Notes under the pieces: generated by a model
Seen by the model: only the letters and a program-made list of their open reading frames with translations
What the model was told of the DNA's origin: nothing
The model's database searches: none
Assembly (NCBI GenBank): GCA_023374045.1
Contig: CM041780.1
Span: forward strand, 34,590,337 to 34,654,336
Source: Limonium bicolor
Lineage: Eukaryota > Streptophyta > Magnoliopsida > Caryophyllales > Plumbaginaceae
DNA length: 64,000 bases
Direction of reading: 5' to 3'
Program-made: the position numbers and the translations under genes
Shown: in pieces, positions 1,843 to 51,348 of the stretch
How the letters are laid out: each line of letters opens with the position of its first letter
How positions within the stretch are numbered: position 1 is the first letter of the stretch

Positions 1843-1847
1843 CAAAT
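1843..1847. repeat. Target-site duplication of element I, left copy (CAAAT)
   Basis: CAAAT directly precedes TGAAATACCCC, and the same five bases directly follow the matching LTR end at 16035-16039. A perfect 5-bp duplication is what Ty3/gypsy integrases produce, and it fixes both ends of element I. Confidence 0.95.
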
Positions 1848-2920
1848 TGAAATACCCCGTAATAAAAACAGTGATTAATTAGGCTAATAAATAATTTAGA
1901 AGCTTAAATAAGTGTAGTATAATCATGAGGGAACAAATCCCGAAGGAAACAGATCCTTAAAACGGATTAAAATCACTAACGAACCTTAAAGCGCGTTTTT
2001 CGAGGTAACGGGGAAAACGTGTCTTTAAGCGGGTCAAATAGACTCGTAACATTTTTGGTCAACTAAATAATCATTAATAAATATTAGTGAAGCTTTAGAA
2101 CCAATAAAATCAAGAAAACGAGAAATTAGTAAAAACTGTCAAAAACGGGAAGTTGTGGGTAGAAGGTAGAAAATAAAAACCAAAAACTATGTGTCCACTA
2201 TTGAAAATAAAATGTACATGTGTGTGTGTGTGCTGTGGTCCTATTTTTCCCCACCTCACACACTCACCTATCTCTCTTATTTACAAAAAAACAAAACAAT
2301 AAAGTAATCACTTTACTACTTTACTCACTCACCTATTCTCTCTCCTACCTCACATTCTCTTCTCTTACGTACAGCACCTTCCCCTTCTCCTCTCTATTTC
2401 TCTTCCTCAACCGTAACAATGGAGATTTGAGCTCCCTCATAAAAACACCAACTTCTCTCCTCTTGTTACCCTCTTGAACATTCTCCAAAAATTATAAAAA
2501 TTACACCATTGTCTTCCTCTCAACAAGGGGAACATTTCCCTCCTTTCAAAATTCGAAAACAACAACTTTCATCTCCATGGGTGTGGAGCATTTGGAGCTT
2601 CAAGACTACCATTAGAACCACCTCCTCCTCCTTGTTCATTTGAGGTAAAAATATTCTTGAAACTTCATTGTTTTCCAGCCTTATGGGCAAAACGAAAATC
2701 TAGCTAAAACCTTGTTTGGTTTCCTTGTACCCTAGCCGATTTTGGCTTCCTTGGAGAGTGGGAAAGATTGTTCTTGAGCCATTCCAAGCATTACCTACAC
2801 CCTTGCAAGGTAATGAAATTTCTAAACCCTACATTAAGCTTTAAAAGAATGGTTAAGGGTTAGTGTATTAAAATGGTGTATATGAATGGGTTGTAGTGTT
2901 GGATTGTGAAGTACTGTAAC

Positions 2921-2921
2921 C

Positions 2922-2952
<31 letters not shown>

Positions 2953-3000
2953 GAAAGGAAGAAGAAGAAGAAGAAGAAGAAGAAAGAAGAAGAGAAGAAA
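2921..3000 (+). repeat. GA and GAA microsatellites in the 5' LTR
   Basis: A run of GA dinucleotides is followed by GAA/GAAG trinucleotides. The 3' LTR version (13254-13320) is shorter and interrupted, so this tract changed after insertion. The Arg/Glu/Lys-rich frame it opens is not a gene. Confidence 0.9.
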
Positions 3001-3017
3001 ACTAGAAGAAAAACAAG

Positions 3018-3200
3018 GTAAGAGTACTCACTTGTGTAGTCTTGTATGTAATCATGTAACTGATTTTAAAAGAGAAACATTGGTATTGTAAAATGGTAAT
3101 GAACAATAGTGTAATTTAGAGGAAGAATTGAATTGTGTTGAAGATTTAAAGACAATTAAAAACTATCACAAACATAGATGGGGATTAATGTGATGTGCAG
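3018..3200 (+). other. Candidate leader intron in the LTR
   Basis: A donor-like CAAG|GTAAG follows a purine-rich stretch, and an acceptor-like GATGTGCAG|G lies 183 nt downstream. A donor and acceptor of similar kind sit at the same relative place in the LTRs at 37717-37919 and 57492-57643. No transcript evidence is available, and whether this part of the LTR is transcribed is inferred only from position. Confidence 0.4.
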
Positions 3201-3730
3201 GAATTTTAAGAGTGTTTTGTGTTTGGTATTAGTGTATGAGAGTTTGTAATTGTTGTTGTGTATAAACAGGTGAGATGGATAGAAATGTGTGAATAAACAA
3301 TGTGGTGAGAGTATAAAGATTAGGGGAGACTATGGCAAAATTTACATGGGATTAGAAGACTCAGAGAACTAGAAACTAGGTGAAGAGTGTGTGTTTGTAA
3401 CAGATTTTGATGGAGCTAGTTGATGGGTAGATTGAGAGGTGTAGTCAATGTATTGTAAGGCATTAGAAGTGTTAGGAATGACATTAGAAGAGGGAGCTAT
3501 AGATGGGGAGTGTAAGTGTCAAAATCTGTAGCAAAATGTAATAAGGGAAAGAAACAATGTGAGTGTTGAGTTGAAACTTGGAAAATTATGTATATAAATT
3601 AGTATAGGATTGTGTAATGGATTAAGGAGTGAAATAACATGATTTAGAGTGTTTAAGTAGTGCTAAAACATGTTAGGATGTATGTAGGAAGATGGGGAAG
3701 CAATGGGTGAAAATGGGAAAGAAAAATAAG

Positions 3731-4075
3731 GTCTGTAGCGCATTCTGCTACAGACCGACCCAGAGCCTGGGTCGGATAGTGGGTGGGTCGGGGCTTAAGT
3801 AACGAAAATAAAAGACACTGGAACGGACTGACCCAGGAGCCTGAGTCGGACGTGGGTCGGTTGGACCAAAATTCTCCATCGTCGAAGTTTCTGACTTCGA
3901 CCGACCCAGAAGTGGGTCGGTCGGTCGGAGCTTGGACAACGGGACTGAAACATACTGGGATGGACCGACCAGAGGTGTATGGGTCGGTCGGAATAGTTCT
4001 GGGTCGGTCGGGAGAGAAATTTCAAAAGACGTGAACCTACTAGAAGGGACCGACCTAGGGCGTGGGTCGGACGGT
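3731..4075 (+). repeat. Array of dyad-symmetric CCGACCC...GGGTCGG sites
   Basis: Inverted repeats start near 3755, 3828, 3901, 3965 and 4050. Clear examples are CCGACCC-N7-GGGTCGG (3755-3775) and CCGACCC-N6-GGGTCGG (3901-3920). Two further stems lie among them: GTCTGTAGC...GCTACAGAC (3731-3755) and GTCGAAG-N7-CTTCGAC (3881-3901). The first three sites are 73 bp apart. The array also occurs in the 3' LTR with changed copy number. It may be protein-binding sites or RNA hairpins; the sequence does not say which. Confidence 0.8.
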
Positions 4076-4862
4076 GGGTCGGACGACCCATAACTTACAA
4101 AAAAAACCATAAGATTATATGGTATATATATATATGTATACCCACCTATACATGTGTGCATATATATGTAAGTATACCATTGATAAGTAATTAAGGGAAG
4201 TAAATAAAATGTAAGTATAGGAATGTAAAGACTCAGTGAGTACGAATTAGGAAACGTAAGAGTAATCGAGTTGAGCTAATGATAGATTGATCATTCAATT
4301 ATATGTATATCATAGGATTTGATTTGTGAACACCAGAGGAACGTTGGGATACAAGTACAACGGTGAACGGTATGAATTCCTCATGCCCCGTATGCTATCT
4401 TGGTTACTCTGATTTGTGTGTTGTGTGCTAATTGATCACCAACTAAGATAAATGCACGAATCGGAGTTATTATGCTTACTTGTGAATATGTAGTGTGTAT
4501 GTGATGAAATCTTCCTTAAATCTTAGTTTGTATAATTCATGAAATGTATGGATGATAATGAACGTGTGTATGTATGATATATTGTATTGTGACCGAATGT
4601 GTTTGAGATTGGACTTCTAACTGATTCCTAACAAACTAACCAATCTAACTTAAATTGGTAATTAAATTGGAATGAGTAGAAGTCCTATATAGTTTCGGCC
4701 ACGCGTGAGGATGCGGAGGCACAAGAGGTGGATCCAAGTCCTGACTCTTAAACTGGTCCGCGGCCCAAATCCCTTAAGTGGGTAGCATCCCGGATTGGTG
4801 AGTCAAGTAAATCCGGTGGTGGGACGGTGTAGTCCCCGGGCCGGAGGTCATACCGACTTAAC

Positions 4863-4955
4863 ATGAGTATGAGTAAGTAAGTAAGAATGAGTAAGTAAGT
4901 AAATGAAAGTAAGTAAGTACAGTAAGAGTAAGTAAGATGTAATGAGTAAAAGAGT
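4863..4955 (+). repeat. AGTAAGT-type tandem repeats in the 5' LTR
   Basis: Units such as 'gagtaagtaagtaa' repeat for about 90 bp. The 3' LTR has a slightly different version at 15195-15285. The block lies about 750-840 bp before the LTR end, a position where every long LTR here has a local tandem repeat. Confidence 0.75.
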
Positions 4956-5129
4956 AATAATCATACCGATTAACACGGATGCGTAATTTGGCTAACACCG
5001 TGAAGGTAAGTGAAGTGTATGTTATTGCAATGTTGCCTTGATCTGTGTAATGTATTGTATAGGCATGTATGTTGTATGCAAAGCATGTATGTATATTAAA
5101 AATGAACCGCATGCCTATTCGACCTTAAT

Positions 5130-5215
5130 TAGTCGGCGTGCCCTAGCTAGCACGCGGTATATACGGAGTTCATGCGCAGCTTTTGCTGAGCCCCTTGGGG
5201 CGATGTTTTTACTAC
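5130..5215 (+). other. Conserved hairpin block of the 5' LTR
   Basis: The segment contains GCGTGC...GCACGC, then GCAGC-TTTT-GCTG, then AGCCCCTTGGGGCG. The same layout with altered but still pairing bases is found in the other long LTRs. It may be a structured RNA element in the transcribed part of the LTR. Confidence 0.5.
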
Positions 5216-5708
5216 ACGCAGGTATAAGAGAAGGATGAAGACCGTGAAGAGATGTAGCTTTGTTTTCTTTTGTCTTCCTTTTTGGGTTGTAATTAATGAA
5301 TTATGAATGGTGTACTAAGTAGTACACGGCTGTAGCTTTTGATAGCCGGTGTACCATGGGGTACACCTTTTGGATATTGATAGGATGGAGATTGGGTATA
5401 GATGAGTAGTTGGTAGAAACTCATTCTTTTGGAAGGATTGGTAAAGGATGTAATTCGATACTTTAAAATACTCGGTAATCCAAGATTGTAAGTAGTTATA
5501 TTTTCGGAGTTGGTAAGTAATGGTAGCCGCTCGATATACTTTGATCATCGGACCGTGACTGTAAGTAAGGTAAGCCTAGCTAGCCGTATGGGCGGTTAGC
5601 GGCATTGTACCACCCGCCGTAGTAGCGTAGTAATTCCGCTGCGAACTGATAGGACTACAGGACGATTAGACGGTAAGAATAGGATTTACGGTAGGGGGTT
5701 ACAAAAAG

Positions 5709-5733
5709 TGGTATTAGAGCGTAGTTACGCTCT
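5709..5733 (+). other. Primer-binding site of element I with overlapping hairpin
   Basis: TGGTATTAGAGC at 5709-5720 differs by one base from TGGTATCAGAGC, the initiator Met-tRNA type site, and starts five bases after the LTR end. Its last bases form the left arm of the palindrome AGAGCGTAGTTACGCTCT (5716-5733). Other elements in the window keep this stem with different paired bases. Confidence 0.85.
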
Positions 5734-5928: not shown

Positions 5929-6595
5929 ATGTCAGGACGAGGTGAGGCCGACCTAGGGAGAGACATCTTCTGATCGACCTGACGCGCAGACGATAGCAGA
6001 GATCGTCGCCGCCACGGTAGCGCAGATGCTACCACAAGTAATCAATGCGATGCAACAAAAACAACAAAACCAATAGAACCAAGCGGGGCCAATCCCCCCA
6101 CCTCCACCCAGAGAAGCTAACTGGGTAAAAGCTGTAGCGGAACTCCGCCCTCCCTGTTTTTGGGGCAAGAGTGATCCGGCTAAGCTAGAAGCCTATATAT
6201 CCGAGATGGAGACGGCGTTCGAAACCCTCGAAGCTCCTGCTGGAGTTCGAGTTAGAGTTGCTGCCTACTATCTAAAAGATGCAGCCATGGATTGGTGGAA
6301 GCTGGTCAAGCATGAGCATGTCAACGACCCCACCTTCGATTGGGAGTCCTTTGCCTCACTCCTCCGTTCCAAATACTACCCGGAGCATGTGAAAACCAAG
6401 AAAAGGCTAGAGCTGGATGCCTTGAAAATGACAGAGAAGATGTCTGTCGACGAGTATTATAGAACCTTCACTTCTATCCTCCGTCTTCTACCCGACCTAG
6501 GGTACACCGGCCAGGTGTTGGTCGATCGCTTCTATGGCGGTCTGAGCCATCGCCTTCGGTACGGTATGGGCTATACCTGGTAAACCTCCCTTCAG

Positions 6596-6889: not shown

Positions 6890-6974
6890 GTAAACTTCTA
6901 TTCCTAAATTGTATTCGTACAAGTATCATATCTAGTATAACCACGCACACATGTGCTAACCCTCTAAACCTTAG
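6890..6974 (+). other. Apparent intron 2 in element I gag (85 nt)
   Basis: The donor AAGG|GTAAAC and acceptor CCTTAG|GTTC join the ...HPPKG segment in frame to GSGSGFTKTF and the first zinc knuckle. Element III has an 85-nt intron at the same codon (49944-50028). In-frame joining, equal length and conserved position support it. Confidence 0.75.
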
Positions 6975-7319
6975 GTTCTGGCTCCGGTTTCACCAAAACC
7001 TTCTCCGACGGCCGCACCTATGTGTGCAGGAAGTGCAACCAAGACCATCCTGGCAAGGACTGTTATGGGAGAGAAATCAAGTGCTACAATTGTCAGAAAC
7101 CGGGACATACAACCAATAGATGCCCAGAGAATGCCAAGCCAAAAGGGAACTTCCAAAGCTACAAGCAGAGGGAAGGCAAGGAGGTTGCATCTGGCGATGC
7201 ACCGACCCAGCAGGCACCACAGGGATAGGGATCCCGGGGACCTCAGAGGGGTGCACCTCAGAGGCAGCCTGACTTGCATGTGATTGACCGTGATGGGTCC
7301 GGTTCTAAGTTCGGCCCAG

Positions 7320-7455
7320 GTAATTACTCGAACCTTTAATCCTTGAAGAAGCATGATTAAGTAGTAGAGTAACTGTTTGAGTGAATGCATGATTGAATGA
7401 ATTGGAATATGTAATGAGCATGAAATGAAGTAGTTGAAACTAGTACTCACCGTAG
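7320..7455 (+). other. Apparent intron 3, between Gag and AlkB (136 nt)
   Basis: The donor is GGCCCAG|GTAATT and the acceptor is CACCGTAG|ATG. The intervening 136 nt contain many stops. Element III has a 136-nt intron at the same place (49459-49594) whose removal puts the Gag tail and AlkB in frame. In element I the joined frames are off by one, which I take to be an indel in the decayed exon. Confidence 0.7.
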
Positions 7456-8211
7456 ATGAAATTTATAACCTTGGGAAGCTTTAGTATCTGTTATCCGATA
7501 CCGGTAAACCTGAATCAAGAAGAGATCGACATCACCAACCACTACTACACCAACGAACAGTGTCAGGTCATCCGACCAGGTATGATTCTACTAAAGGAAT
7601 ACCTGACACCCGAAGCCCAAATTTCAATCATCCGACGATGCAACGAGCTAGGAACGGGCCAAGGTGGATTTTATACACCCGAATTCCCCGGTGGAGCGAA
7701 GATGAAGCTGAAAATGATGTGCTTGGGAAAGGACTGGAATCCTTATACCAAGACATACCAGGAGACACGAACACGAGACAGAGCAACGCCACCGACAATA
7801 CCTCCAGAGTTTCATACACTCATATAAGCAGTAGGGCTTGCGCAACAATGTGAATATGATCTGATTCCCGCACTTGAAGCGGACCTTTGTATCGTCAACT
7901 TCTATGAGAAAGAAGGGCGACTTGGGTTACACCAAGACAAGGACGAGACAGCGGAATCCCTTGAACAAGGAGTGCCCGTAGTGTCTTGGTCCATTGGTGA
8001 TGACGCCGTATTTATGTATAGCGAGCAGAAGCGTGTGGACCTCGCAGAGAAATTGGTATTGAGATCAGGAGATGTCCTAATCATGGGTGGAAACTCTAGG
8101 ATGCTGTATCACGGGATCAACAAGATCAAGTTGAATACGGCACCACCGACCATAATCAATGCCACACACATGAAACCAGGACGCCTGAACCTTACCTTTA
8201 GGAAGTATTAA
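7456..8211 (+). pseudogene. AlkB-family 2OG/Fe(II) dioxygenase domain in element I
   Basis: AlkB-family enzymes use 2-oxoglutarate and Fe(II) to remove alkyl groups from nucleic acid bases. The 251-codon frame has one internal TAA (7825-7827, codon 124) and is otherwise open. Visible features are RPGMILLKEYL near residue 35, GGFYTPEF near 64, MMCLGKDW near 81, the iron ligands H159 and D161 in LGLHQDKDE, PVVSWSIGDD, LRSGDVLIMGG, the distal iron ligand H219 in LYHGI, and the RxNxTxR signature as RLNLTFR (R243-R249) with the 2OG-binding arginines. The layout recalls bacterial AlkB and even more plant ALKBH1-like proteins. It lies between Gag and protease, apparently reached by splicing from gag. 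Whether DNA, RNA or protein was the substrate cannot be told. Confidence 0.9.
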
Positions 8212-8395
8212 ATTTATAGTATCATGTAATCTATTAGTAACGTGTATTAGAGACACGGTTTATATGATGGTTGGTTTATCAATAAAGAACAGTGTTGATT
8301 TAAATTCCACTTGTGTCCACCATCAATGCTTATCCAATTGTGAATCCAATAGGTTGTGGACTCGGTACCGAAGGTAACCTGAGTATCCTACCGAA
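8212..8395 (+). other. Spacer between AlkB and protease
   Basis: About 180 bp with no convincing coding frame. It includes an AATAAAG near 8281, which may be incidental. Element III has a similar-length gap (48560-48719), so the AlkB stop and the start of the pol frame are separate in both. How pol was expressed (own initiation, splicing or reinitiation) is not visible. Confidence 0.6.
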
Positions 8396-8677
8396 GCACA
8401 AGCCAGCAGAAGCGGCACCATCTTAACGGGAACATTCCCAGTGAACGGCATTGAAGCCAATGTGTTATTCGACTCCAACGCCTCTCACACTTTCGTATCA
8501 CCATCTTTTGTGAAGAGGTTGAAGCTAGATGCGGATGAGCTACCGAACTTCATGGTTACTCTCCCATCGAAGGAGCGGGTAAAGTGCACCAAGTATTATC
8601 AAACAGCCACGATTGAAATAAAAACGAAGCGTTTCCCATTTCCTTCATCGAGTTTAATGGATTGGGATTCGACTTGA
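8396..8677 (+). pseudogene. Element I protease (retropepsin), frameshifted
   Basis: This is the aspartic protease that would process the polyprotein. The run GTFPVNGIEANVLFD leads into DSNAS, where family members have DSGAS, so the catalytic triad's glycine appears replaced. VTLPSKERVKC follows. The frame must shift by one base near 8640 to continue into [15 protein letters not shown], the usual link to RT. I place the beginning by homology with element III; no ATG is evident. Confidence 0.8.
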
Positions 8678-10455
8678 TAATCAGAATGAATTGGTTGGAG
8701 CGGCACAAGGGTAGAATCCTCTGCGTCGAGCATCGATTGCTGCTCAAGAGTCCTTCTAGGGTTACTGTATCTTACCGCCAGAGACCGAGAGAGCCTTCGA
8801 CCACACTCATATCTGCTATGGCTTTGTACTGGGAGCTCAGAAAGGGCCATGAAGTGTATCTGTGCTATGTACAAGACCTGGAGAGAGATCCAGAGTTCAA
8901 TCCTGAAGTACCAATCGTATCCGAATTTCCCGACGTATTCCCTAAGGAGCTACCCGGCATGCCACCTCAAAGAGCAGTGGAATTTGAGATTGACCTCTTG
9001 ACAGGTACCGGTCCCATTGCTAGGGCACCGTACTGCATGACACCTGCTGAAATGACAGAATTGAAAGAGCAGTTACGTGATTTACTCGACAAAAGGTTTA
9101 TACTCCCGAGCGTATCACCCTGGGGAGCACCGGTTCTCTTCGTGAAGAAGAAGGACGGTAGTCTCCGCCTTTGTATTGACTACCGCGAGTTGAATGCGGT
9201 TACAGTCAAGAATAAATACCCATTGCCACGCATCGACGACCTATTCGACCAGCTGAAAGGAGCAACAGTCTTCTCCAAGATTGACCTCCGTTCTGGGTAT
9301 CATCAAATTGCTATCAAAGAACAAGACATCAAGAAAACGGCATTCCGTACCAGATATGGCCACTACGAATTCACCGTCATGCCATTCGGTTTGTCAAATG
9401 CACCAGCAAAATTCATGGACCTCATGAATCGATTATTCAGTGAGCAGTTGGACACTTCGGTTGTTGTCTTCATCGACGACATCCTTGTATACTCAAAATC
9501 AGCAGAGGAATATGAAATCCATTTGAGGAAAGTGCTTGAGACACTGCGCGAGAACCAGCTGTATGCAAAGTTCTTCAAATGCGAGTTCTGGCTAGATCAG
9601 GTGTCATTCCTTGGTCATGTCATCTCGAGCGCGGGTATCTCAGTTGACCCTTCAAAGATAGAAGTTGTACGATCATGGCCTAGACCTAAGACTGTTACCG
9701 ACATTCGGAGCTTTCTTGGTCTAGCCGGTTATTACCGGAGATTTGTAAAGGAATTCTCGAAAGTCGCTAAGCCTATAACTACACTGATGAAGAAAGATGC
9801 ACCGTTTGTATGGACAGACGAGTGCGAAATATCATTTCAGAGCCTTAAAGACTCATTGACCTCAGCGCCCATTCTTACTCTTCCAGAGGGCACAGAGGGA
9901 TTTGAGGTATATTGTGATGCATCAGGCAAGGGAATGGGATACGTACTCATGCAGCATGGCAAGGTTGTAGCTTATGCCTCCCGCCAGCTGAAAAAGCATG
10001 AGGAGAATTACCCGACGCACGATTTAGAGTTAGGAGCCATTGTCTTCGCCTTGAAGATATGGCGACACTATCTCTATGGGGTAAGCATCACCATCTACTC
10101 CGACCACAAGAGCTTACAGTATGTATTCACACAGAAAGAATTGAATTTGAGACAGAGAAGGTGGATGGAGTTTCTCTCAGACTACGACATCGACCTACAG
10201 TATAAGGAAAGGAAGACAAACATTGTAGCCGACGCCCTGAGCCGTCGAGCACACTCGCTCCATTCGCTACTCGCTTCTTCTAGCTTGGTTGACGAGGTGC
10301 GAGACGCTCAGTTGAGCGACCCTTACCTAACCGAAATCAGACAAAAGATCGAGAATGGTACATTTGAGAAGAAGAAGTATGACTTCAAGCTACATGAAGA
10401 TGGTTTGATTCGGTTGAATGACAGGATATGCGTCCCCCGAAGCAATCTGAGCTAA
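8662..10455 (+). CDS. pol: Element I reverse transcriptase and RNase H, open segment
   Basis: RT copies element RNA into DNA and RNase H removes the RNA strand. The 597-codon open segment shows the linker [49 protein letters not shown], the polymerase motif [24 protein letters not shown], then RNase H with [22 protein letters not shown] and VADALSR. Catalytic aspartates are present. It ends by frameshift near 10440, where the integrase continues in another frame. This is the best-preserved part of the element. RT places it with chromoviruses by general appearance; no tree was made. Confidence 0.93.
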
Positions 10456-11490
10456 GGGATCGCATCCTGCGAGAGTCACACAGTTCCACATTGTCAGTCC
10501 ATCCGGGAGCCTCCAAGATGTACAAAGACATGAAGAGGTACTTCTGGTGGTCTGGAATGAAATCGGATGTGACAGAGTTTGTATTGAGATGCTTAACATG
10601 CCAGAAAGTAAAGTTTGAACATCGTAGACCGGGCGGAATGGTACAATCGATGCCAGTTCCGGAGTGGAAATTTCATGATATCTCCATGGATTTTGTTGTA
10701 GGACTCCCACCTGCTAGGGGAGGACTCAACATGATCAGGGTTGTAGTCGATCGCCTTACCAAGGTTGCCATATTCATACCGATGAAGGACACCTGGAAGG
10801 TAGTGAAGCTCGCAGAGCTATTCGACAAGGAGATTATCAGACATCATGGAGTCCCGAAAACTATAGTATCTGACCGCGACACCAGATTTCTTTCGAGATA
10901 CTAGAGAGCTACACGGGAAGCGCTGGGTACAGAATTGAAATTGAGTACCGCCTTCTATCCTCAGACCGACGGTCAGACAGAAAGGACCATCCAGACACTG
11001 GAGGACATGCTTCGGGCATGTGCCTTAGATTTTCAGGGGAGTTGGTTAGATAAGCTTCATCTTATCGAATTTTCTTACAATAATAGTTATCATGCTTCGA
11101 TTAAGATGTCGCCTTTCCAAGCTCTATACGGTTGACCCTGTCGTACACCCTTGTGTTGGGATGAGTCAAGTGAAGCGGTCATCATAGGACCGGAGTATCT
11201 TGAGCAAGTCCAAGCGAAAATGCAACAAATCCGAGCCAATATGAAGGCAGCCCAAGATAGACAGAAATCATATGCGGATGTGAGACGACGCGACCTTGAG
11301 TTCGCCGTGGGCGACCAAGTGTTCTTGCGAGTTTCACCTATGAAGGGCATATTCCGTTTTGGTCAGAAGGGCAAGCTAAGCCCAAAGTTTGTAGGGCCGT
11401 ACACTATTACCGAAAGAGTTGGATCCGTAGCCTGCAGGTTAGCATTACCTGAGGACTTGGGGCGTGTCCATGATATATTTATGTGTCACA
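10428..11490 (+). pseudogene. Element I integrase, with two stop codons
   Basis: Integrase inserts the cDNA into the chromosome. The zinc-binding HHCC part (STLSVHPGASKMY ... CLTCQKVK) is followed by the DDE core: [20 protein letters not shown] and a glutamate after PQTDGQTERTIQ. The frame is interrupted by TAG at 10902 and TGA at 11133, where the sister element has Trp and Arg codons. The C-terminal GPY/F-type motif is GKLSPKFVGPYTI. The frame shifts near 11490. Confidence 0.9.
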
Positions 11491-11728
11491 ACTCAAGAAG
11501 TATATTGCCTATCCTTCTCATGTCCTAGAGCCCGAGAGACTATCCATCGAACCGAACATGAGATATGTCGAAACCCTAGTGAGAATCCTGGATAGGAAGA
11601 CCAGAGACACTCGCCATAAGTCTATACGAATGGTGAAGGTCCTATGGTCAAACCATGATGTCGAAGAAGGGACATGGGAGTTGGAAGATGCCATGAAGGC
11701 TAAGTACCCACAGTTATTCATAGACTAG
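11483..11728 (+). pseudogene. Element I chromodomain-like C-terminal tail
   Basis: After a frameshift from integrase the sequence reads VSQLKKYIAYPSHVL, then YVETLVRILDRKTR, VKVLWSNHDVEEGTWELE and MKAKYPQLF before the stop. This tail is typical of Tekay/Del chromoviruses, where a chromodomain-type fold is thought to steer integration to heterochromatin. Confidence 0.85.
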
Positions 11729-12179: not shown

Positions 12180-15100
12180 TGAAATACCCCGTAATTAAAA
12201 ACAATGATTAATTAGGCTAATAAATAATTTAGAAGCTTAATTAAGTGTAGATAATAATGAGGGAACAAATCCCGAAGGAAACGGATCCTTAAAACGGATT
12301 AAAATCACTAACGAACCTTAAAGCGCGTTTTTCGAGGTAACGGGGAAAACGTGTCTTTAAGCGGGTCAAATAGACTCGTAACAATTTTGGTCAACTAAAT
12401 AATCATTAATAAATATTAGTGAAGCTTTAGAACCAATAAAATCAAGTAAACGAGAAATTAGTAAAAACTGTCAAAAACGGGAAGTTGTGGGGTAGAAACA
12501 TAAATAACCAAAACTTATGTGTCCACTATTGAAAATAAAAATATACATGTGTGTGTGTGTGCTGTGGTCCGATTTTCCCCCTCACACACTCACCTATCTC
12601 TCCTTATTTACAAAACAACAAAACAATAAAGTAACTCACTTTACTGCTTTACTCACTCACCTATTCTCTCTCCTACCTCACATTCTCTTCTCTCACGTAC
12701 AGCACCTTCCCCTTCTCCTCTCTATTTCTCTTCTTCCTCAACGGTAACAATGGAGATTTGAGCTCCCTCATAAAAACAACAACTTCTCTCCTCTTGTTAC
12801 CCTCTTGAACATTCTCCAAAAATTATAAAAATTACACCATTGTCTTCCTCTCAACAAGGGGAACATTTCCCTCCTTTCAAAATTCGAAAACAACAACTTT
12901 CATCTCCATGGGTGTGGAGCATTTGGAGCTTCAAGACTACCATTAGAACCATCTCCTCCTCCTTGTTCATTTGAGGTAAAAATATTCTTGAAACTTCATT
13001 GTTTTCCAACTTATGGGCAAAACGAAAATCTAGCTAAAACCTTGTTTGGTTTCCTTGTACCCTAGCCGATTTTGGCTTCCTTGGAGAGTGGGAAAGATTG
13101 TTCTTGAGCCATTCCAAGCATTACCTACACCCTTGCAAGGTAATGAAATTTCTAAACCCTACATTAAGCTTTAAAAGAATGGTTAAGGGTTAGTGTATTA
13201 AAATGGTGTATATGAATGGGTTGTAGTGTTGGATTGTGAAGTACTGTAACCGGGAGAGAGAGAGAGAGAGAGAGAGAAAGAAAGGAAGAAGGAAGAAGCA
13301 AGAAGAAGAGAAAGAAAACTAGAAGAAAAACAAGGTAAGAGTACTCACTTGTGTAGTCTTGTATGTAATCATGTAACTGATTTTAAAAGAGAAACATTGG
13401 TATTGTAAAATGGTAATGAACAATAGTGTAATTTAGAGGAAGAATTGAATTGTGTTGAAGATTTAAAGACAATTAAAAACTATCACAACATAGATGGGGA
13501 TTAATGTGATGTGCAGGAATTTTTAAGAGCGTTTGTGTTTGGTATTAGTGTATGAGAGTTTGTATATTGTTGTTGTGTATAAACAGGTGAGATGGATAGA
13601 AATGTGTGAATAAACAATGTGGTGAGAGTATAAAAATTTAGTGGAGACTATGGCAAAATTTACATGGGATTAGAAGACTCAGAGAACTAGAAACTAGGTG
13701 AAGAGTGTGTGTTTGTAACAGATTTTGATGGAGCTAGTTGATGGGTAGATTGAGAGGTGTAGTCAATGTATTGTAAGGCATTAGAAGTGTTAGGAATGAC
13801 ATTAGAAGAGGGAGCTATAGATGGGGAGTGTAAGTGTCAAAATCTGTAGCCAAATGTAATAAGGGAAGAAACAATGTGAGTGTTGAGTTGAAACTTGGAA
13901 AATTATGTATATAAAGTAGTATAGGATTGTGTAATGGATTAAGGAGTGAAATAACATGATTTAGAGTGTTTAAGTAGTGCTAAAACATGTTAGGATGTAT
14001 GTAGGAAGATTGGGGAAGCAATGGGTGAAAATGGGAAAGAAAAATAAGGTCTGTAGCGCATCCTGCTACCGACCGACCCAGAGCCTGGGTCGGACAGTGG
14101 GTCGGTCGGGGCTAAAGTAACGAAAAAAAAGACACTGGAACGGACCGACCCAGGAGCCTGAGTTGGACGTGGGTCGGTCGGACCAAAATTCTCCGTTGTC
14201 GAAGTTTCTGACTTCGACCGACCCAGAAGTGGGTCGGTCGGTGGGTCGGTCGGTGGGTCGGTCGGAGCTTGGACAACGGGACTGAAACATACTGGGATGG
14301 ACCGACCCAGAGGTGTATGGGCTGGTCAGAATAGTTCTGGGTCGGTCAGGAGAAATTTCAAAAGACGTGAACCTACTGGAAGGGACCGACCCAGGGTGTG
14401 GGTCGGACGACCCATAACTTACAAAAAAAAACTATAAGATTATAATTAGTATATATATATATATGTATACCCACCTATACATGTGTGCATATATATGTAA
14501 GTATACCATTGATAAGTAATTAACGGAAGTAAATAAAATTTAAGTATAGGAATGTAAAGACTCAGTGAGTACGAATTAGGAAATGTAAGAGTAATCGAGT
14601 TGAGCTAATGATAGATTGATCATTCAATTGTATGTATATCATAGGATTTGATTTGTGAACACCAGAGGAACGTTGGGATACAAGTACAACGGTGAACGGT
14701 ATGAATTCCTCATGCCCCGTATGCTATCTTGGTTACTCTGATTTGTGTGTTGTGTGCTAATTGATCACCAACTAAGATAAATGCACGAATCGGTTTATTA
14801 TGCTTACTTGTGAATATGTAGTGCTGTATGTGATGAATATCTTCCTTAAATCTTAGTTTGTATAATTCATGAAATGTATGGATGATAATGAATGTGTGTA
14901 TGTATGATATATTGTATTGTGACCGAATGTGTTTGAGATTGGACTTCTAACTGATTCCTAACAAGCTAACCATTCTAACTTAAATTGGTAATTAAATTGG
15001 AATGAGTAGAAGTCCGATATAGTTTCGGCCACGCGTGAGGATGCGGAGACACAAGAGGTTGGATCCAAGTCCTGACTCTTAAACTGGTCCGCGGTCCAAA

Positions 15101-16034
15101 TCCCTTAAGTGGGTAGCATCCCGGATTGGTGAGTCAAGTAAATCCCGGTGGTGGGACGGTGTAGTCCCCGGGCCGGAGGTCATACCGACTTAACATGAGT
15201 ATGAGTAAGTAAGTAAGAATGAGTAAGTAAGTAAATGAAAGAAAGTAAGTAAAGTAAGAGAGTAAGATGTAATGAGTAAAAGAGTAATAAGCATACCGAT
15301 TAACCGGATGCGTAATTTGGCTAACACCGTGAAGGTAAGTGAAGTGTATGTTATTGCAATGTTGCCTTGATCTGTGTAATGTATTGTATAGGCATGTATG
15401 TTGTATGCAAAGCATGTATGTATGTTAAAAATGAACCGCATGCCTATTCGACCTTAATTAGCCGGCGTGCCCTAGCTAGCACGCGGTATATGCGGAGTTC
15501 ATGCGCAGCTTTTGCTGAGCCGCTTGGGGCGATGTTTTTACTACACGCAGGTACAAGAGAAGGATGCAGACCGTGAAGATGTAGCTTTGTTTTCTTTTGT
15601 CTTCCTTTTTGGGTTGTAATTAATGAATTATGAATGGTGTACTAAGTTGTACACGGCTGTAGCTTTTGATAGCCGGTGTACCATGGGGTACACCTTTTTG
15701 GATATTGATAGGATGGAGATTGGGTATAGATGAGTAGTTGGTAGAGACTCATTCTTTTGGAAGGATTGGTAAAGGATGTAATTCGATACTTTAAAATACT
15801 CGGTAATCCAGGATTGTAAGTACGTTATATTTTCGGAGTTGGTAAGTAATGGTAGCCGCTCGGTATACTTTGATCATCAGACCGTGACTGTAAGTAAGGT
15901 AAGCCTAGCTAGCCGTATGGGCGGTTAGCGGCGTTGTACCACCCGCCGTAGTAGCGTAGTAATTCCGCTGCGAACTGATAGGACTAACAGGACGATTAGA
16001 CGGTAAGAATAGGATTTACGGTAGGGGTGTTACA
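12180..16034 (+). mobile_element. Element I 3' LTR
   Basis: It starts TGAAATACCCC and ends GGGGTGTTACA, followed by CAAAT. It matches the 5' LTR along its length. The most visible differences are in simple repeats and in the dyad array (14073-14410), where a GTGGGTCGGTCG unit has multiplied (14229-14263) and another has been lost. No gene is seen. Confidence 0.95.
14048..14415 (+). repeat. Dyad-symmetric CCGACCC/GGGTCGG array, 3' LTR copy
   Basis: Sites start near 14073, 14145, 14218, 14302 and 14386. The first three are 72-73 bp apart as in the 5' LTR. The later spacing differs because of a local expansion of GGGTCGGTCGGT units. Comparing the two LTRs shows this array to be one of the least stable parts of the element. 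Confidence 0.8.
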
Positions 16035-16039
16035 CAAAT
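16035..16039. repeat. Target-site duplication of element I, right copy (CAAAT)
   Basis: It directly follows the LTR end ...GTGTTACA and equals the five bases before the 5' LTR. Confidence 0.95.
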
Positions 16040-19937: not shown

Positions 19938-20812
19938 CAAAATTCTTAATTTTAACTTGTTTAATCTTAAGAAAGAGGGCTTAACTCGAATTGTTGTTTA
20001 TGGCTTTATTACTTTGTTTATTTTACTTTTGTGCGCGCTTTAATTTTTGCACCCTTGCATCATATGAGTGCGAGGGACCACGCAAACCAATTTTACCCCG
20101 GGACCCGCTTGAGGGTCCCCTGTCATGGACTCACACCTTTTAGGTGATGTGAATAAGTGGGGGAAAAGAGGAGGGTGTCGTCTAACCACACCCCCTTAAT
20201 ACCTGGGCTTTAGCCCCAAGCATTTTCCTGGCAGTACCCTTACCTAGCCCATTGTTTGGTCAGTCAAAGACCCGACCGTAGACGCACACCTTTAGGTGAT
20301 GTGAAAAAGTGGGGTAGCCCAAAGAGAATAGCGTGCAAGCCCTATTCCTTTGTGGTGACCTGGGCCCGTGCCCCAAGCACCTCTCTGGATCGATCTGTAC
20401 CCATTGGAATGAGTTATTTCGTGAGGACATTTGCATCACCTCCTTATGTAGAACTTCTGTGTATGTGCTCCTTTTCTCCTGGGCCTCAGGCCCAATGCCT
20501 GAATCGATCCATCCATCTCTTCTAGCCCAAATGAAACATTTAAAGGGTTTTCATAGTCCAAATACTTCGATCACCCCAAAACACAAAAAATCCTTTAAGT
20601 TGATTCTTGTTACAAGCCTAATTCTTGCAATATCCACTCGTAAGACCAACGAATCTTGTAACCCAAAAGTGTAGTCCAGAGCAGACCCTCCCGAAATTTT
20701 GGAGTCCGGCATTTAGTGCAGCACACTAATCTTCGGCCTGAGTTCCTAGTCTCACTCCCGCAATGCTGACTTATCTTTTTGCTTAAAATAGGCAGCACCC
20801 CTCGCAGCTAGG
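19938..20812 (+). other. Element II leader before gag, no gene seen
   Basis: This 875-bp leader has no convincing gene. A 'cacaccttttaggtgatgtg' type segment occurs twice, near 20132 and 20287, each followed by 'aagtgggg' and G/C-rich text. The frame at 20256-20525 overlaps them and has no recognisable domain. Confidence 0.6.
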
Positions 20813-33260: not shown

Positions 33261-33421
33261 TGGGCGGCCTGTGATGTAATAGCTTGTTAGCCACGTGGGT
33301 TGGTTAACTAGCGTGTAACACCAACAGTTAGCATGTGAGGAAGTATGTTTTCTCCTTCCGCTGCCAGTTTCAACAAACGTGGTGCGTGTTAAGCGAGAGT
33401 TGTGTTGGATGGGGTGTTACA
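33261..33421 (+). mobile_element. Truncated 3' end of a forward LTR
   Basis: The text from about 33278 ('agcttgttagccacgtggg') to GGATGGGGTGTTACA matches the end of the LTR at 58180-58312. The rest of that LTR is missing on the left. It is followed by a PBS, so it is the remnant of the 5' LTR of region A. Confidence 0.75.
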
Positions 33422-33426
33422 AAAAG

Positions 33427-45719: not shown

Positions 45720-46470
45720 ATACCAGCATAAAGGAGTCCTACACGGTCTACCATAAAGTGCCTGGAATGGTGGCATCTGTATCGAGGAGTGGTAGCTGTT
45801 GTTGTAGGCGAACTGTATCAAGTGTAGACGCTCTAACCAACTCCCCTAAAAGTCTAAGGCACATGCTCTCAGCATGTCCTCCAGTGTCTGGATGGTCTTC
45901 TCACTCTGACCGTCGGTCTGTGGATGGAACGCCGTACTAAGCTTTAATTTCATACCCAAGGCTTCCTGCACCTTTCCCCAGAATCTGGACAAAAATCGAG
46001 GGTCCCTATCAGAAACAATAGTCTTTGGCACACCATGGTGCCGGATCACCTCCTTCTGGAACAAGTCCGCTAATTTGGAACGTTCCAGGTATCCTTCATA
46101 GCAACAAACTTTGCCACCTTCGTCAGACGGTCTACAATGACCCAAATCATGTTCAGTCCTCCCTTAGTCGGTGGGAGACCGACAACGAAATCCATCGAGA
46201 TGTCCTCGAACTTCCAACAAGGAATAGGCATAGACTGCACTAAACCTCCGGGTCTCCTATGCTCAAACTTAACCTTCTGACAGGTCAAGCATCTAGCCAC
46301 ATACTCAGCTACATCCTTCTTCATCCCGCTCCACCAGAAATGAACTTTCAAATCCTTATACATCTTCGAAGAACCAGGGTGGACGGATAAGGACGAGCAA
46401 TGAGCCTCCTGGAGTATCTTCTCCTTCAGATCAGGAGACGACTCCAGAATACATAATCGGCCATTCAGTC
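45720..46470 (-). pseudogene. Element III integrase, 3'-truncated
   Basis: The HHCC region ([16 protein letters not shown] ... CLTCQKVK) and core motifs [23 protein letters not shown] and PQTDGQSEKTIQ are present. A frameshift near 46080 separates the two halves. A TAG follows CALDF near 45844, where element I has Gln. The homology continues to CRTPLCW and ends at about 45722, next to region B. Confidence 0.9.
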
Positions 46471-47107
46471 GTAACATGCCATCATTACACAGTTTGAAAT
46501 CATACTTTTGTCTTTCATAACAACCCTCTAACATTTTCTGTTTGATACTCTGCATATAGTGATCACTCTCCTGTGCAGCTCGTATCTCATCAATCATACT
46601 GCTGTTTGCTACTAGCGTAAACAATGAATGAGCTTTGCGGCTCAGGGCGTCGGCAACTACATTTGCTTTGCCCTCTTTATACCTCAGGTCTATGTCGTAG
46701 TCCTTCAAGAACTCGACCCATCTTCTCTGTCGCATGTTCAGCTCCTTCTGAGAGAAGAGATGCTGTAGACTCTTGTGATCAGAGTAGATAGTGACTGTCA
46801 CACCATACAAATAATGTCGCCAGATCTTCAAAGTGAAGACTACTGCGCCTAACTCAAGGTCGTGTGTGGGGTAATTCACCTCATGCTTCTTCAGCTGTCG
46901 GGATGCGTAAGCAACTACCTTCCCGTGCTGCATAAGCACACAGCCTAGACCGGTTCCAGAGGCATCACAATATACCTCGAACCCATCGGTGCCCTCAGGG
47001 ATAGTAAGAACGGGCGCCGATGTCAGGAGATCCTTCAGCGTCTGAAAGGACTGCTCACACTCTGTAGACCATAAGAACTGGGATTCCTTCTTCATTAGAT
47101 TTGTCAT
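46470..47107 (-). CDS. Element III RNase H and linker, open segment
   Basis: This is part of an open frame from 47107 to 46070. It shows [41 protein letters not shown] and [11 protein letters not shown], with the catalytic acidic residues of RNase H visible. The frame then runs on into integrase. Confidence 0.9.
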
Positions 47108-48090
47108 GGTTTGGCTTCCTTGGAGAAGTCCTTCACGAATCTTCGATAATACCCTGCCAAACCCAGAAAGCTACGGACGTCGGTGACTGTCTTCGGCCTT
47201 GGCCAACTCTTCACTGCCTCTATCTTAGCAGGATCTACAGATATGCCGCTAGCTGATATAATGTGTCCTAGAAATGACACGCTGTCCAACAAAAACTCAC
47301 ACTTAGAGAGTTTGGCATACAGCTGGTTCTCTCTCATAATATTCAACATCTGTCTCAAATGTAACTCATGATCTTCCTTAGTCTTTGAATAGATCAGAAT
47401 ATCGTCGATGAAGACTACAACTGAACTATCAAGATGCTCTCTAAAAAGATGGTTCATCAAGTCCATGAATATGGCTGGCGCATTCGTCAATCCGAATGGC
47501 ATAACGGTGAACTCATAGTGTCCATACCGTGTCCTGAAAGCTGTCTTCTCAATATCACCCTCTGCGATCCTAATCTGATGGTAGCCAGATCTGAGATCTA
47601 TCTTCGAGAACACACTGGCCCCTCTCAGCTGATCAAATAAATCATCTATCCGTGGTAATGGGTACTTGTTCTTGACTGTAACCGCATTAAGCTCGCGGTA
47701 GTCGATGCAGAGTCGCATACTGCCGTCCTTTTCTTGACGAACAGCACTGGAGCACCCCAAGGAGAAACACTAGGTCGAATGAATCCCTTGTCGAGGAGGT
47801 CCTCCAGCTGTAGCTTCAGCTCCCTCATCTCAGCCGGTGCCATACGGTAGGGTGCCTTAGCAATAGGGCCCGTACCTGGCAACAAGTCGACGGTGAACTC
47901 AACCTCGCGCACAGGCGGCATGCCTGGCAGCTCATCAGGAAATAAGTCATGAAAATCTACCACGACTGGAATGTCTACGTCCGTCACGTCGCTCTGTCTC
48001 GTGTCCTGTACATAACAGAGGAAGGCTTGTCGGCCCTTCCTAACATCCTTCATCAGGGACAATGCTGACACATCTTGACAGTCGGCTCTC
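47104..48090 (-). pseudogene. Element III reverse transcriptase, frameshifted
   Basis: The linker LPGMPPVREVEFTVDLLPG and [12 protein letters not shown] lie in one frame. After a one-base loss in the A/G-rich run near 47725 the RT continues with [24 protein letters not shown], the polymerase motif [12 protein letters not shown] and [16 protein letters not shown] and frame change near 47104 separate it from the RNase H part. Confidence 0.92.
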
Positions 48091-48559
48091 TCCTCACACT
48101 GCGGTATGACACTGTCCTGCCGCTCGGCCCCTTCAGTAGTAGCTGATGCTTTGCACAATGAAGGCGGCCCCAATGCTTCTGCAGCCAATCCATGCCCACT
48201 ATGATGTCAAAACCCAAGTTCTTGAACTCAATCAGATCAATGGGGAAGGTCTCAGTCATAATGCTGATCTCTAACCCTGTATACTGTCTGGTGCAACCTA
48301 CTTTCTCCTTCGAAGGAAGGGTGACTGCAAAGTCTGAAAGCTGCTCGGGGGTGGCCCCCAGCTTCTTAGCAAACATCGAGGAAATAAAAGAATGCGAAGC
48401 CCCTGAGTCGAACAATACGGAAGCACTAACACCATCAATAGGGAAGGTACCTGAGATCACCTCTCGTATTAGCATCGAGTCCCAATAAATCACTAATTTA
48501 CTGTTGTTTGTAATTGTCATACCTGTGATGACATTACCAGACTCCTTGGCTTGTGCCAT
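48091..48559 (-). CDS. Element III protease (retropepsin), open segment
   Basis: The frame begins MAQAKESGNVITGMTI, a plausible start of pol, and includes VLFDSGASHSF with the normal DSGA active site, VTLPSKEKVGC and LGFDIIVGMDWLQKH. It shifts frame near 48090 before the RT linker. Here the active site is intact, unlike in element I. Confidence 0.88.
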
Positions 48560-48719
48560 GTCTAGGATGCAGATGGTACCCTCCTTTCCATTTCTATAGC
48601 CTGAAGTTATGAATTATCGGTATCAACAAACTGAATACAAACACTTGTAGGTATAAACTCTTATTTCATTCATTCCAACTGTATTATACAAGGTTACACG
48701 CTTAGCTACTGCTATTACA
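48560..48719 (-). other. Spacer between AlkB and protease in element III
   Basis: About 160 bp without a coding frame. It matches in place and length the gap at 8212-8395 of element I. Confidence 0.6.
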
Positions 48720-49458
48720 TTAATACTGTCTGAAAGTCAAGTTTAAACGGCCAGGTCGGATGTGGGTATCATTCACTAAAGCTGGTGGTGCGGTATTGAG
48801 CTTAATGCTCTTAATACCATGATATACAAGCCTCGACTCCCCACCAAATACCAACACATCCCCAGACTTGAGGATGATCTTGCTTGCTAGATCCATCCTC
48901 TTCTGGTCTCCATAAATGAACTCAGCATCATCGCCGATGGAGAATGACACAACCGGTATTCCTCTGGTGATGGACTCGGTCGTCTCATCACGGTCCTGGT
49001 GCATTCCAAGCTTTCCCCCTGCTCATAGTAGTTGATGATGCAAACGTCAGGTGTCATGTCGGGTAATGGGTAAGCCTCACAGTCTTGAGCAATATCCATT
49101 GCGTTTCTCACCAAGGTAAGGAAACTCTCAGGTATACAAGTATAGATACGTCACCTACCATCCTCACCTCTCGATAAACCCTAGCTTGTGGATCCCAATC
49201 TTTCCCTAAGCACATCATGTGCAGTTTCATTCTAGAACCACTATTAAATACAGGGGTATAAAAAACCTCCTATGCCCTTACCCAAAGCTCTACACTCATT
49301 CACTATGGTGATTTGCTCATCTAGGGTTAGGAACTCTCTAAGAAGTATCATGCCCGGTCTGACTACATGACACAACTCACTAGGGTACTCCCGTCTTTCT
49401 TCCACGGGTCTAGGTGATCTCTGCCTTGTAAGTGTGGGATAGCAGATATCGAAGTCTC
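48720..49458 (-). pseudogene. AlkB-family 2OG/Fe(II) dioxygenase domain in element III
   Basis: Read on the minus strand, the domain starts with DFDICYP after the intron acceptor and shows RPGMILLREFL, MKLHMMCLGKDWDP, DVCIINYYEQG, the iron ligands in GMHQDRDE, PVVSFSIGDDAEF, LKSGDVLVFGG, the distal histidine in VYHGI and the RxNxTxR signature as RLNLTFRQY. The frame is broken by single-base indels in a T-run near 49262, near 49140 and in a G-run near 49015. Over the last 79 residues I count 54 identities with the element I copy, and most differences are conservative (V/I, K/R, M/L). Confidence 0.9.
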
Positions 49459-49594
49459 CTAAGAGGTAAAAGGTTTCCTAGGTAAGTTGTTCATCTAAAG
49501 CGGTAACTTAAACACACATTCATGCTAAGGTAAAGCGTTTAACACTTAGTCATGCTCTCATACAATGGTTAAGGTTTCAAATGCTAACCTTCAC
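49459..49594 (-). other. Apparent intron between Gag and AlkB in element III (136 nt)
   Basis: On the minus strand the donor is CAGCGCG|GTGAAG and the acceptor CCTCTTAG|GAGAC. Splicing joins TSTQR in frame to GDFDICYP. The length equals that of element I intron 3, and both contain a 'gagcatga.taag' type stretch. Confidence 0.72.
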
Positions 49595-49943
49595 CGCGCT
49601 GGGTACTAGTGCCAGCGCCTGAAGCTCCCGCTGCATTCAGCATACGGTTACCCGGCGGGTTCCTCTGGTTCTGGTTTGCTGCTGTGGCTGCTGATGCTGC
49701 TGCCCTCTCTGGGCTTGGGGCGCCGGCCCCCTCTGGCCACCTCGAGCTCCACCTCCTCCAGTAGGTGCGCTCTGAGTCCCCTTCTGCGGGTGGTACGCTC
49801 GGCTATCTGGATTAGTAAAGCACTCGAACGACCTGTGGCCCTTCTTTCCACAATGGTGGCAGTCCACCGCTTGCCCGGTGCAGTCGACACCCGGGTGGTC
49901 CTTACCACAGCGCTTGCAGTGAAAGTGGCGCTGGGTACAAAAC

Positions 49944-51323: not shown

Positions 51324-51348
51324 AGAGCGGTACTCCGCTCTGATACCA
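51324..51348 (-). other. Primer-binding site of element III with overlapping hairpin
   Basis: On the minus strand TGGTATCAGAGC (51348-51337) is an exact match to the standard site. It overlaps the stem AGAGCGG-AGTA-CCGCTCT (51341-51324), in which the last stem pair is G-C where element I has T-A. Confidence 0.88.

What the first reader, a model, noticed from the sequence alone, without database searches (positions are those of the whole stretch)
7456..8211. AlkB-type dioxygenase carried by a Ty3/gypsy retrotransposon between Gag and protease
The sequence shows all hallmark residues of an AlkB 2OG/Fe(II) dioxygenase (HQD, distal H in YHG, RLNLTFR) inside a TSD-bounded Tekay-like element. Only one stop codon interrupts 251 codons. 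AlkB domains are established in cells and in several plant RNA virus families; I do not know of a described Ty3/gypsy lineage that carries one, but I could not search. Inference: the element may strip methyl marks from its own RNA or repair alkylated RNA or cDNA during transposition.
Basis: partly seen in the sequence, partly recalled or inferred. Interest (0 to 1): 0.92.

Follow-up and report, generated by a model that had tools for sequence, protein, structure and literature searches.

The report
Plant retrotransposon carrying an AlkB gene
A very common jumping gene of this plant carries its own copy of an enzyme that strips methyl groups off nucleic acids, kept in working order by selection and lodged in what looks like an intron between its two main genes; a different jumping gene of orchids was already known to carry a related enzyme.

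Summary
Window 7456-8211 encodes an AlkB dioxygenase with one stop in 251 codons. It lies between the gag zinc knuckles and the protease of a Ty3/gypsy chromovirus with LTRs, a 5-bp TSD and a tRNA-Met primer site. It is no stray insertion: a divergent second element in the window (minus strand, AlkB 48720-49477) has it at the same place. In the host genome (2.9 Gb), 40 of 40 scored hits for each of two subfamilies carry it, and gag/AlkB/protease order is kept in 38 of 40 and 30 of 30 inspected copies. Selection acts in the AlkB frame (pN/pS 0.24 and 0.18); 11 of 40 and 6 of 29 copies are uninterrupted. Catalytic residues and predicted fold match plant ALKBH1 (rice 5xoi), not ALKBH5. The idea is not wholly new: Phalaenopsis Ogre/Tat elements carry an ALKBH5-like m6A demethylase (PMC9289625). 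This looks like a separate acquisition: other element lineage, AlkB subfamily and architecture. Substrate and benefit remain inferred.

The parts
1843..1847 (.). 5-bp target site duplication CAAAT, left copy (right copy 16035-16039)
   Evidence: flanks printed
1848..5703 (+). 5' LTR of element 1 (3' LTR 12180-16034), TG...CA ends, K2P 0.023
5709..5720 (+). primer binding site, tRNA-Met type, 1 mismatch to the 12-base motif searched (motif recalled)
6077..6595 (+). gag capsid exon (PF03732 1.3e-16)
6890..6974 (+). intron-like gap C inside gag, GT...AG, phase 1; same place and length (85) in element 2
   Evidence: GT in 34 of 37 and AG in 35 of 37 copies
6975..7319 (+). gag zinc-knuckle exon (PF00098 5.7e-05)
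7320..7455 (+). stretch D: intron-like, 34% GC; donor GT 7320 and acceptor AG 7454-7455 directly before the AlkB ATG
   Evidence: GT 37 of 37 and AG 37 of 37 copies
7456..8211 (+). AlkB (ALKBH1-type 2OG-Fe(II) dioxygenase) open frame, one internal stop in this copy
8212..8352 (+). stretch E: intron-like, 31% GC; acceptor AG 8351-8352; removal of 7320-8352 joins gag to the protease leader in phase
8402..8620 (+). aspartic protease (PF08284 1.9e-14); frame broken between leader and protease in this copy
8617..10452 (+). reverse transcriptase and RNase H
10422..11525 (+). integrase pieces (H2C2 3.8e-20, rve 8.6e-04, SH3_Tf2-1 5.3e-18)
11474..11725 (+). C-terminal chromodomain (PF00385 1.3e-04, 22.2 bits, below the 25.1 cut-off)
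48720..49477 (-). AlkB of element 2, same place between gag and protease, several frame breaks
49643..49900 (-). zinc-knuckle part of element 2 gag
48056..48613 (-). protease of element 2 (PF08284 5e-28)
46073..47769 (-). RT, RNase H and integrase H2C2 of element 2 (RT 172 of 221 residues identical to element 1)
51337..51348 (-). primer binding site of element 2, exact match to the tRNA-Met motif, next to an LTR end (51353-51363)

Best explanation
A lineage of plant chromoviruses captured an ALKBH1-type AlkB gene and has kept it as a resident, selected gene between gag and pol. Shown here: fixed position in two diverged, abundant subfamilies of one genome; frame-specific purifying selection; catalytic residues kept; ALKBH1-like predicted fold of a close relative. 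Supported but not proven: the AlkB frame lies inside an intron. One splice (donor 7320 to exon start 8353) removes it and makes Gag-Pol; another acceptor directly before the AlkB frame (7456) yields an RNA for AlkB. Inferred: the enzyme removes methyl groups from the element's own nucleic acids (RNA m6A/m1A/m3C, or 6mA/m1A/m3C in single-stranded cDNA), so that marks set by the host or by damage do not sequester the RNA or stall reverse transcription.
For: Genome copies: 40 of 40 scored hits (3858 loose candidates; the window's own copy included) span AlkB almost end to end at 93-100%. 38 of 40 keep gag-zinc/D/AlkB/E/protease/RT order. For the element-2 type, 40 of 40 scored hits (2940 candidates, own copy included) span nearly the whole gag-AlkB-protease query, and all five parts are in 30 of 30 loci taken of those 40. 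Selection: pooled pN/pS 0.243 over the pairs of 40 copies (779 pairs with a ratio) and 0.175 over the pairs of 29 (405 with a ratio). In the AlkB frame, codons 43 to the end give 0.14-0.46, the two other frames 0.66-1.55. Between the two window elements, mismatches at codon positions 1/2/3 are 73/56/146 of 223 codons, p 2.5e-19. Splicing: D donor GT, D acceptor AG and E acceptor AG in 37 of 37 copies and 29 of 29. The D-to-E join is open into the protease in 24 of 37 (22 of 25 with donor phase 1) against 37 of 247 control AGs (23 of 37 by a motif test), and 19 of 29 against 9 of 254. Fold: P0002, a database relative, mean pLDDT 88.3, best PDB matches rice ALKBH1 5xoi/5xeg, 51/50% identity. Fe and 2OG ligand residues kept in 16-17 of 17 one-frame copies.
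Against: No RNA data: all splice sites are read from DNA. The 37-of-37 GT/AG is only moderately special, because 39-50% of the dinucleotides in D and E are also kept in 95% or more of copies, and the supposed donor of gap A in gag reads GT in 0 of 37 other copies. The zinc-knuckle exon itself is open in only 17 of 37 copies. A Gag-to-AlkB join by the D acceptor is out of the AlkB frame in 27 of 37 copies by one test (10 passed a loose motif test) and stops within 16 codons in 32 of 37 and at codon 22 in 25 of 29, so how AlkB translation starts is unsolved. The 6 uninterrupted element-2-type copies have no in-frame Met before codon 43, yet that N-terminus shows pN/pS 0.28 over 29 copies; in family 1 the first 42 codons show weak constraint (0.69, not lower than frame +2 at 0.48). 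Both window copies are broken. No activity, substrate or benefit was measured.
Confidence: 0.72

Rival explanations
1. Passenger: a host ALKBH1 transcript was captured once, and the amplification of a successful element carried it along without use.
For: Capture of host sequence by LTR elements is well known (recalled). 29 of 40 family-1 copies are interrupted (20 with length not divisible by three, 9 with stops), 23 of 29 family-2 copies too, and both window copies are broken.
Against: Neutral passengers do not show pN/pS near 0.2 in one frame only, nor conserved residues between subfamilies whose synonymous sites are saturated. Breakage of single copies is expected after insertion.
Confidence: 0.06
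2. Direct Gag-AlkB fusion, in frame or by a +1 frameshift in a short overlap, so that AlkB is packaged in the particle.
For: After the D splice the AlkB frame is +1 to Gag in both subfamilies, with an overlap of 9 codons in 22 of 37 copies or 22 codons in 25 of 29; constraint on the family-2 N-terminus upstream of the first Met; 10 of 37 copies passed a loose test for joining the AlkB frame.
Against: Most copies put a stop soon after the join; 30 of 40 family-1 matches begin with ATG at the AlkB start, which fits separate initiation. Among 20 database proteins with E <= 0.001 (2527 candidates, length filter about 605-1925 aa) none has a gag, protease or RT family in its precomputed Pfam column.
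Confidence: 0.17
3. Same working as the orchid case: the enzyme is an RNA m6A eraser that frees element RNA from host m6A control (a rival on substrate only; compatible with the architecture above).
For: Precedent in Phalaenopsis with activity in vitro (PMC9289625); an ALKBH1-like protein of Nicotiana benthamiana removed m6A from single-stranded RNA (PMC12736721, passages).
Against: The domain is ALKBH1-type, not ALKBH5-type; rice ALKBH1 is reported to act on 6mA in unpaired DNA or R-loops (PMC10469495, passages).
Confidence: 0.4

Closest known systems
Phalaenopsis Ty3/gypsy elements with a 2-ODD ORF (Gypsy_Pa_2799; Alvarado-Marchena et al. 2022, PMC9289625)
   Same: Plant Ty3/gypsy elements that carry an AlkB-family (PF13532) gene besides the canonical domains, multicopy and conserved.
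   Different: There: sister to Ogre, inside Tat, primer site antisense to tRNA-Arg, Gag-Pol as one ORF of 2640 aa, a separate 565-aa ORF2, ALKBH5-like. Here: chromodomain and tRNA-Met primer site, AlkB between gag and pol inside an intron-like stretch, ALKBH1-like, about 250 aa.
Plant ALKBH1 (rice OsALKBH1, PDB 5xoi/5xeg; angiosperm ALKBH1C/D-like proteins)
   Same: Best sequence and fold match; same Fe and 2OG ligands and matching substrate-pocket W, Y, D, E positions (pocket roles recalled from E. coli AlkB).
   Different: About 50% identity; the element proteins form a separate clade of 6 rows (support 100/97). Host gene structure was not examined.
[quoted passage not shown]
   Same: A plant Ty3/gypsy polyprotein gene interrupted by an intron spliced from part of the transcripts.
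   Different: Different clade; here the intron-like stretch lies between gag and protease and contains the AlkB gene; further intron-like gaps lie inside gag.
AlkB domains of plant RNA viruses (Alpha-, Betaflexiviridae, Closteroviridae; named in PMC9289625)
   Same: Mobile genome with an AlkB domain.
   Different: Only remote structural matches (12-17% identity for the rows named as plant viruses among the 50 shown); several lie in replicase polyproteins.

Membership tests
AlkB / ALKBH1-type 2OG-Fe(II) dioxygenase | PF13532 match | tested here: met
   C half 2.9e-32 (112.9 bits); N half 1.1e-06 (29.4 bits, below 31.2)
AlkB / ALKBH1-type 2OG-Fe(II) dioxygenase | HxD...H and RxxxxxR ligands | tested here: met
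   H, D, H in 17 of 17, the two R in 16 and 17 of 17 one-frame copies
AlkB / ALKBH1-type 2OG-Fe(II) dioxygenase | ALKBH1-like rather than ALKBH5-like by sequence and fold | tested here: met
   Best PDB sequence hit 5xeg 6.2e-70; no ALKBH5 among 21 hits; fold ranks 1-2 rice ALKBH1, ALKBH5 first at rank 38. No ALKBH5/9/10 protein was in the trees.
AlkB / ALKBH1-type 2OG-Fe(II) dioxygenase | Demethylase activity | not testable with these tools
   needs protein
Ty3/gypsy chromovirus | PR-RT-RH-INT order, chromodomain after integrase | tested here: met
   the chromodomain match of element 1 is below Pfam's cut-off (22.2 vs 25.1 bits); element 2 is cut off before that point
Ty3/gypsy chromovirus | tRNA-Met primer site, 5-bp TSD | tested here: met
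   PMC6317226 (passages): tRNA-Met in most chromoviruses, not in non-chromoviruses
Tekay clade | RT phylogeny with reference Tekay elements | not tested
Phalaenopsis AlkB-Ogre lineage | ALKBH5-like domain | tested here: not met
Phalaenopsis AlkB-Ogre lineage | tRNA-Arg primer site, Gag-Pol in one ORF | tested here: not met
   tRNA-Met site; gag and protease separated by the AlkB stretch
Phalaenopsis AlkB-Ogre lineage | dual RNase H | not tested
   only the ordinary RNase H was matched in the pieces scanned

The most novel reading that the evidence does not exclude
A successful chromovirus lineage runs an intron switch. Splicing out a nested ALKBH1-type gene makes Gag-Pol; using the inner acceptor makes a demethylase that acts on the element's own single-stranded cDNA or RNA-DNA hybrids (6mA, m1A, m3C) instead of, or besides, RNA m6A. 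It would be a retroelement with a cDNA-proofing dioxygenase, acquired independently of the orchid case.
Probability: 0.3. Interest if true: 0.82.

Novelty: new variant of a known kind. Interest (0 to 1): 0.66.

Why it matters
Two different plant Ty3/gypsy lineages with two different AlkB subfamilies would make nucleic-acid demethylation a repeatedly selected need of plant retrotransposons, not an orchid oddity. The lineage is abundant in a 2.9-Gb genome and has closely similar copies, so whether the host's methyl marks (RNA m6A, DNA 6mA) restrain retrotransposons can be tested in native tissue. It also suggests an enzyme gene nested in a gag-pol intron, which bears on how plant elements balance genome RNA against messenger RNA.

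Tried and rejected
Chance or single insertion: rejected. ALKBH5-type m6A eraser by descent: not supported by sequence and fold. Recent copy of a sampled angiosperm ALKBH1 gene: not supported, since the element clade is separate; but its sister is unresolved, because a tree holding it with three legume 219-aa proteins is not rejected (p-AU 0.467). Gag-AlkB or AlkB-pol fusion proteins in databases: none among the 20 hits with E <= 0.001 under the length filter. P0142 (Artemisia) looked close by score but is a host-like protein with a tandem duplication. Viral and prokaryote contigs gave only remote AlkB relatives: none with P0002 in viral contigs, 4 loci at 31-40% with the alignment, and 80 kept of 125 prokaryote loci at 29-48%; their flanks were not examined. 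The closest relatives P0001-P0004 come from unnamed contigs that I could not read, so whether they sit in elements is inferred from the tree only. Host ALKBH1 gene of this plant: not found, because the search did not complete.

Limits. Family-1 copies are the 40 best AlkB matches, and family-2 loci the best 30 of 40, so the share of elements that lack AlkB is unknown. Candidate counts 3858 and 2940 are loose first looks, not copy numbers. The insertion date (about 0.9 million years for LTR K2P 0.023) uses a recalled rate of 1.3e-8. The notebook says that the orchid ORF2 lies after pol; I did not see that in the paper and do not use it.

Full report
Observation. Window 7456-8211 is an AlkB gene with a single internal stop. 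Both halves match PF13532 (the N half is just below Pfam's cut-off), and the best solved relative is rice ALKBH1 (5xeg, 6.2e-70 over residues 36-250). The surrounding element has LTRs 1848-5703 and 12180-16034 (K2P 0.023 over 3810 sites), a CAAAT duplication at both ends and a tRNA-Met primer site with one mismatch. It has gag, zinc knuckle, protease, RT, RNase H, integrase and a chromodomain match slightly below Pfam's cut-off. With a recalled rate of 1.3e-8 the insertion is about 0.9 million years old; one AlkB stop and a frame break at the protease fit such an age.

Not a one-off. tblastn with six AlkB proteins found two places in the window: this one, and 48720-49477 on the minus strand. 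The latter belongs to a second element whose RT shares 172 of 221 aligned residues with the first. There too AlkB lies between zinc knuckle and protease. The two AlkB genes differ at 73, 56 and 146 of 223 codons at positions 1, 2 and 3 (p 2.5e-19), with synonymous sites saturated (pS 0.83). The RT shows the same pattern (47, 25, 135 of 221). Of four AlkB pieces compared, one (23 codons) shows no significant bias (p 0.20). So the gene was very probably present, and selected, along both lineages for a long time.

Whole genome. After 12 unanswered tries, the host assembly (2.92 Gb, 2686 contigs) was searched. The AlkB DNA of element 1 gave 3858 loose candidates; 40 were scored, and all 40 (the window copy included) matched nearly end to end at 93-100% on the eight long contigs C1-C8. 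I took all 40 with 1.5-kb flanks. Thirty-eight of 40 show gag-zinc, D, AlkB, E, protease, RT in order; L105 and L110 lack matches to E and protease beside AlkB. The element-2 type gave 2940 loose candidates; 40 of 40 scored matches cover nearly the whole gag-AlkB-protease query at 92-100%, and all 30 loci taken of them have the five parts.

Selection. Among the 40 family-1 copies 11 have an uninterrupted AlkB frame, 9 have stops without net length change and 20 have lengths not divisible by three. Pooled pN/pS is 0.243. Among 29 family-2 copies other than the window's, 6 are uninterrupted, 6 have stops, 17 have lengths not divisible by three, and pN/pS is 0.175. A frame control (39 and 29 copies) gives, for codons 43 onward, 0.14 and 0.29 (family 1) and 0.46 and 0.14 (family 2) in the AlkB frame, against 0.66-1.16 and 0.78-1.55 in the other frames. 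For the first 42 codons, family 2 shows 0.28 (others 1.68, 0.96) but family 1 only 0.69 (others 0.76, 0.48), so the N-terminus of family 1 shows no clear constraint. Ligand and pocket residues are kept in 16 or 17 of 17 copies that read in one frame with at most two stops.

Which AlkB. Database search gave four close relatives (P0001-P0004, 59-70% identity, unnamed contigs); the other 116 of the 120 listed (378 in all) are 41-54% identical, and those with names are plant proteins, many called ALKBH1C/D-like. In two trees the window genes and P0001-P0004 form one clade apart from the host proteins included (support 99, 72 rows; 100/97, 62 rows). Their place relative to three legume proteins of 219 aa is open (p-AU 0.467). 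AlphaFold of P0002 has mean pLDDT 88.3. Foldseek ranks rice ALKBH1 first and second (51/50% identity), then E. coli AlkB (28-30%); ALKBH5 first appears at rank 38 (15-17%). Viral AlkB folds are remote. Rice ALKBH1 is reported to remove 6mA from unpaired DNA and R-loops (PMC10469495, passages), and an ALKBH1-like protein of N. benthamiana to remove m6A from RNA (PMC12736721, passages). Either substrate is possible.

Architecture. Gag of both elements is broken by AT-rich GT...AG gaps (24-35% GC against 49-62% in the gag exons). Gap C lies at the same place with the same length (85) in both, though its phases agree only in element 1; in other family-1 copies its GT is kept in 34 of 37 and its AG in 35 of 37. 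Gap B is in element 2 only. Gap A is doubtful: its GT is found in 0 of 37 other family-1 copies (this stretch aligns badly). AlkB is flanked by two such gaps, D and E (31-36% GC; AlkB 46%). The D donor, the D acceptor just before AlkB and the E acceptor before the protease leader are kept in 37 of 37 copies (40 minus the window copy, L105 and L110) and 29 of 29. Against that, 39-50% of dinucleotides in D and E are also kept in at least 95% of copies. Joining D to E opens into the protease in 24 of 37 copies (22 of 25 at phase 1) against 37 of 247 other AGs in E, and in 19 of 29 against 9 of 254. Joining D to the AlkB acceptor stops within 16 codons in 32 of 37, and at codon 22 in 25 of 29. So Gag-Pol is most simply made by splicing out AlkB, and AlkB needs its own route: an RNA spliced to the inner acceptor (30 of 40 family-1 matches begin with ATG there), or a +1 shift from the Gag tail. 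The uninterrupted family-2 copies have no in-frame Met before codon 43, so their start is unexplained.

Known work. PMC9289625 (parts 1-4 of 7 and the Discussion read) screened 121 angiosperm genomes and found PF13532 in LTR-element consensuses only in two Phalaenopsis species; those are Ogre/Tat-related, ALKBH5-like and active on m6A RNA in vitro. PMC12786077 (passages) cites that work and names no other such case there. PMC6317226 (passages) places tRNA-Met primer sites in most chromoviruses and not in non-chromoviruses, and describes the Ogre intron. On additional ORFs: PMC7264820 has 0 occurrences of 'alkb' and 'dioxygenase', PMC11728184 0 of both (passages), PMC7730604 0 of 'dioxygenase' (passages). 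Nine answered paper searches of the held open library listed no chromovirus with AlkB; subscription papers and preprints are not in it.

Verdict. Real, abundant, selected, and by lineage, subfamily and architecture a second case of an AlkB gene in plant Ty3/gypsy elements, probably acquired independently, with an intron-nested arrangement that I found in no paper seen. Mechanism beyond demethylation by homology is inferred.

Noticed in passing
window 50151-50242 (-) against element 1 near 6740: Intron-like gap B (phase 2) splits gag of element 2 but is absent at the matching place in element 1, as if one lineage lost or gained an intron.
   Followed up: partly
window about 5929 (+) and about 51127 (-): Both elements have an acceptor-like TTCAG directly before the gag ATG, hinting at a 5' leader intron.
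   Followed up: no
window 56495-63595: A 644-bp direct repeat (97% identical) starting TGAAATACCCC at 56495 and 62956, with an LTR end at 58302 between and no AlkB match: probably a short non-autonomous element with the same LTR ends.
   Followed up: no
window 295 (-), 33411 (+), 40625 (+): Further LTR ends followed by tRNA-Met primer sites; 33270-36228 is 82% identical to 58178-61154.
   Followed up: no
window 20792-22576 (+): Another retroelement-like stretch: a 262-aa frame with a weak aspartyl protease match (E 0.002) and a 252-aa frame without a convincing Pfam family.
   Followed up: no
P0143, P0144, P0161: Legume proteins of 219 aa; the first two are 57% identical to P0002, more than the other named host proteins in that alignment; their tree place is unresolved.
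   Followed up: partly
L005-L010: MAG contigs labelled Blastocatellia, Vicinamibacterales or Acidobacteria encode AlkB proteins 37-44% identical to the element protein, the prokaryote matches with the best E-values.
   Followed up: no
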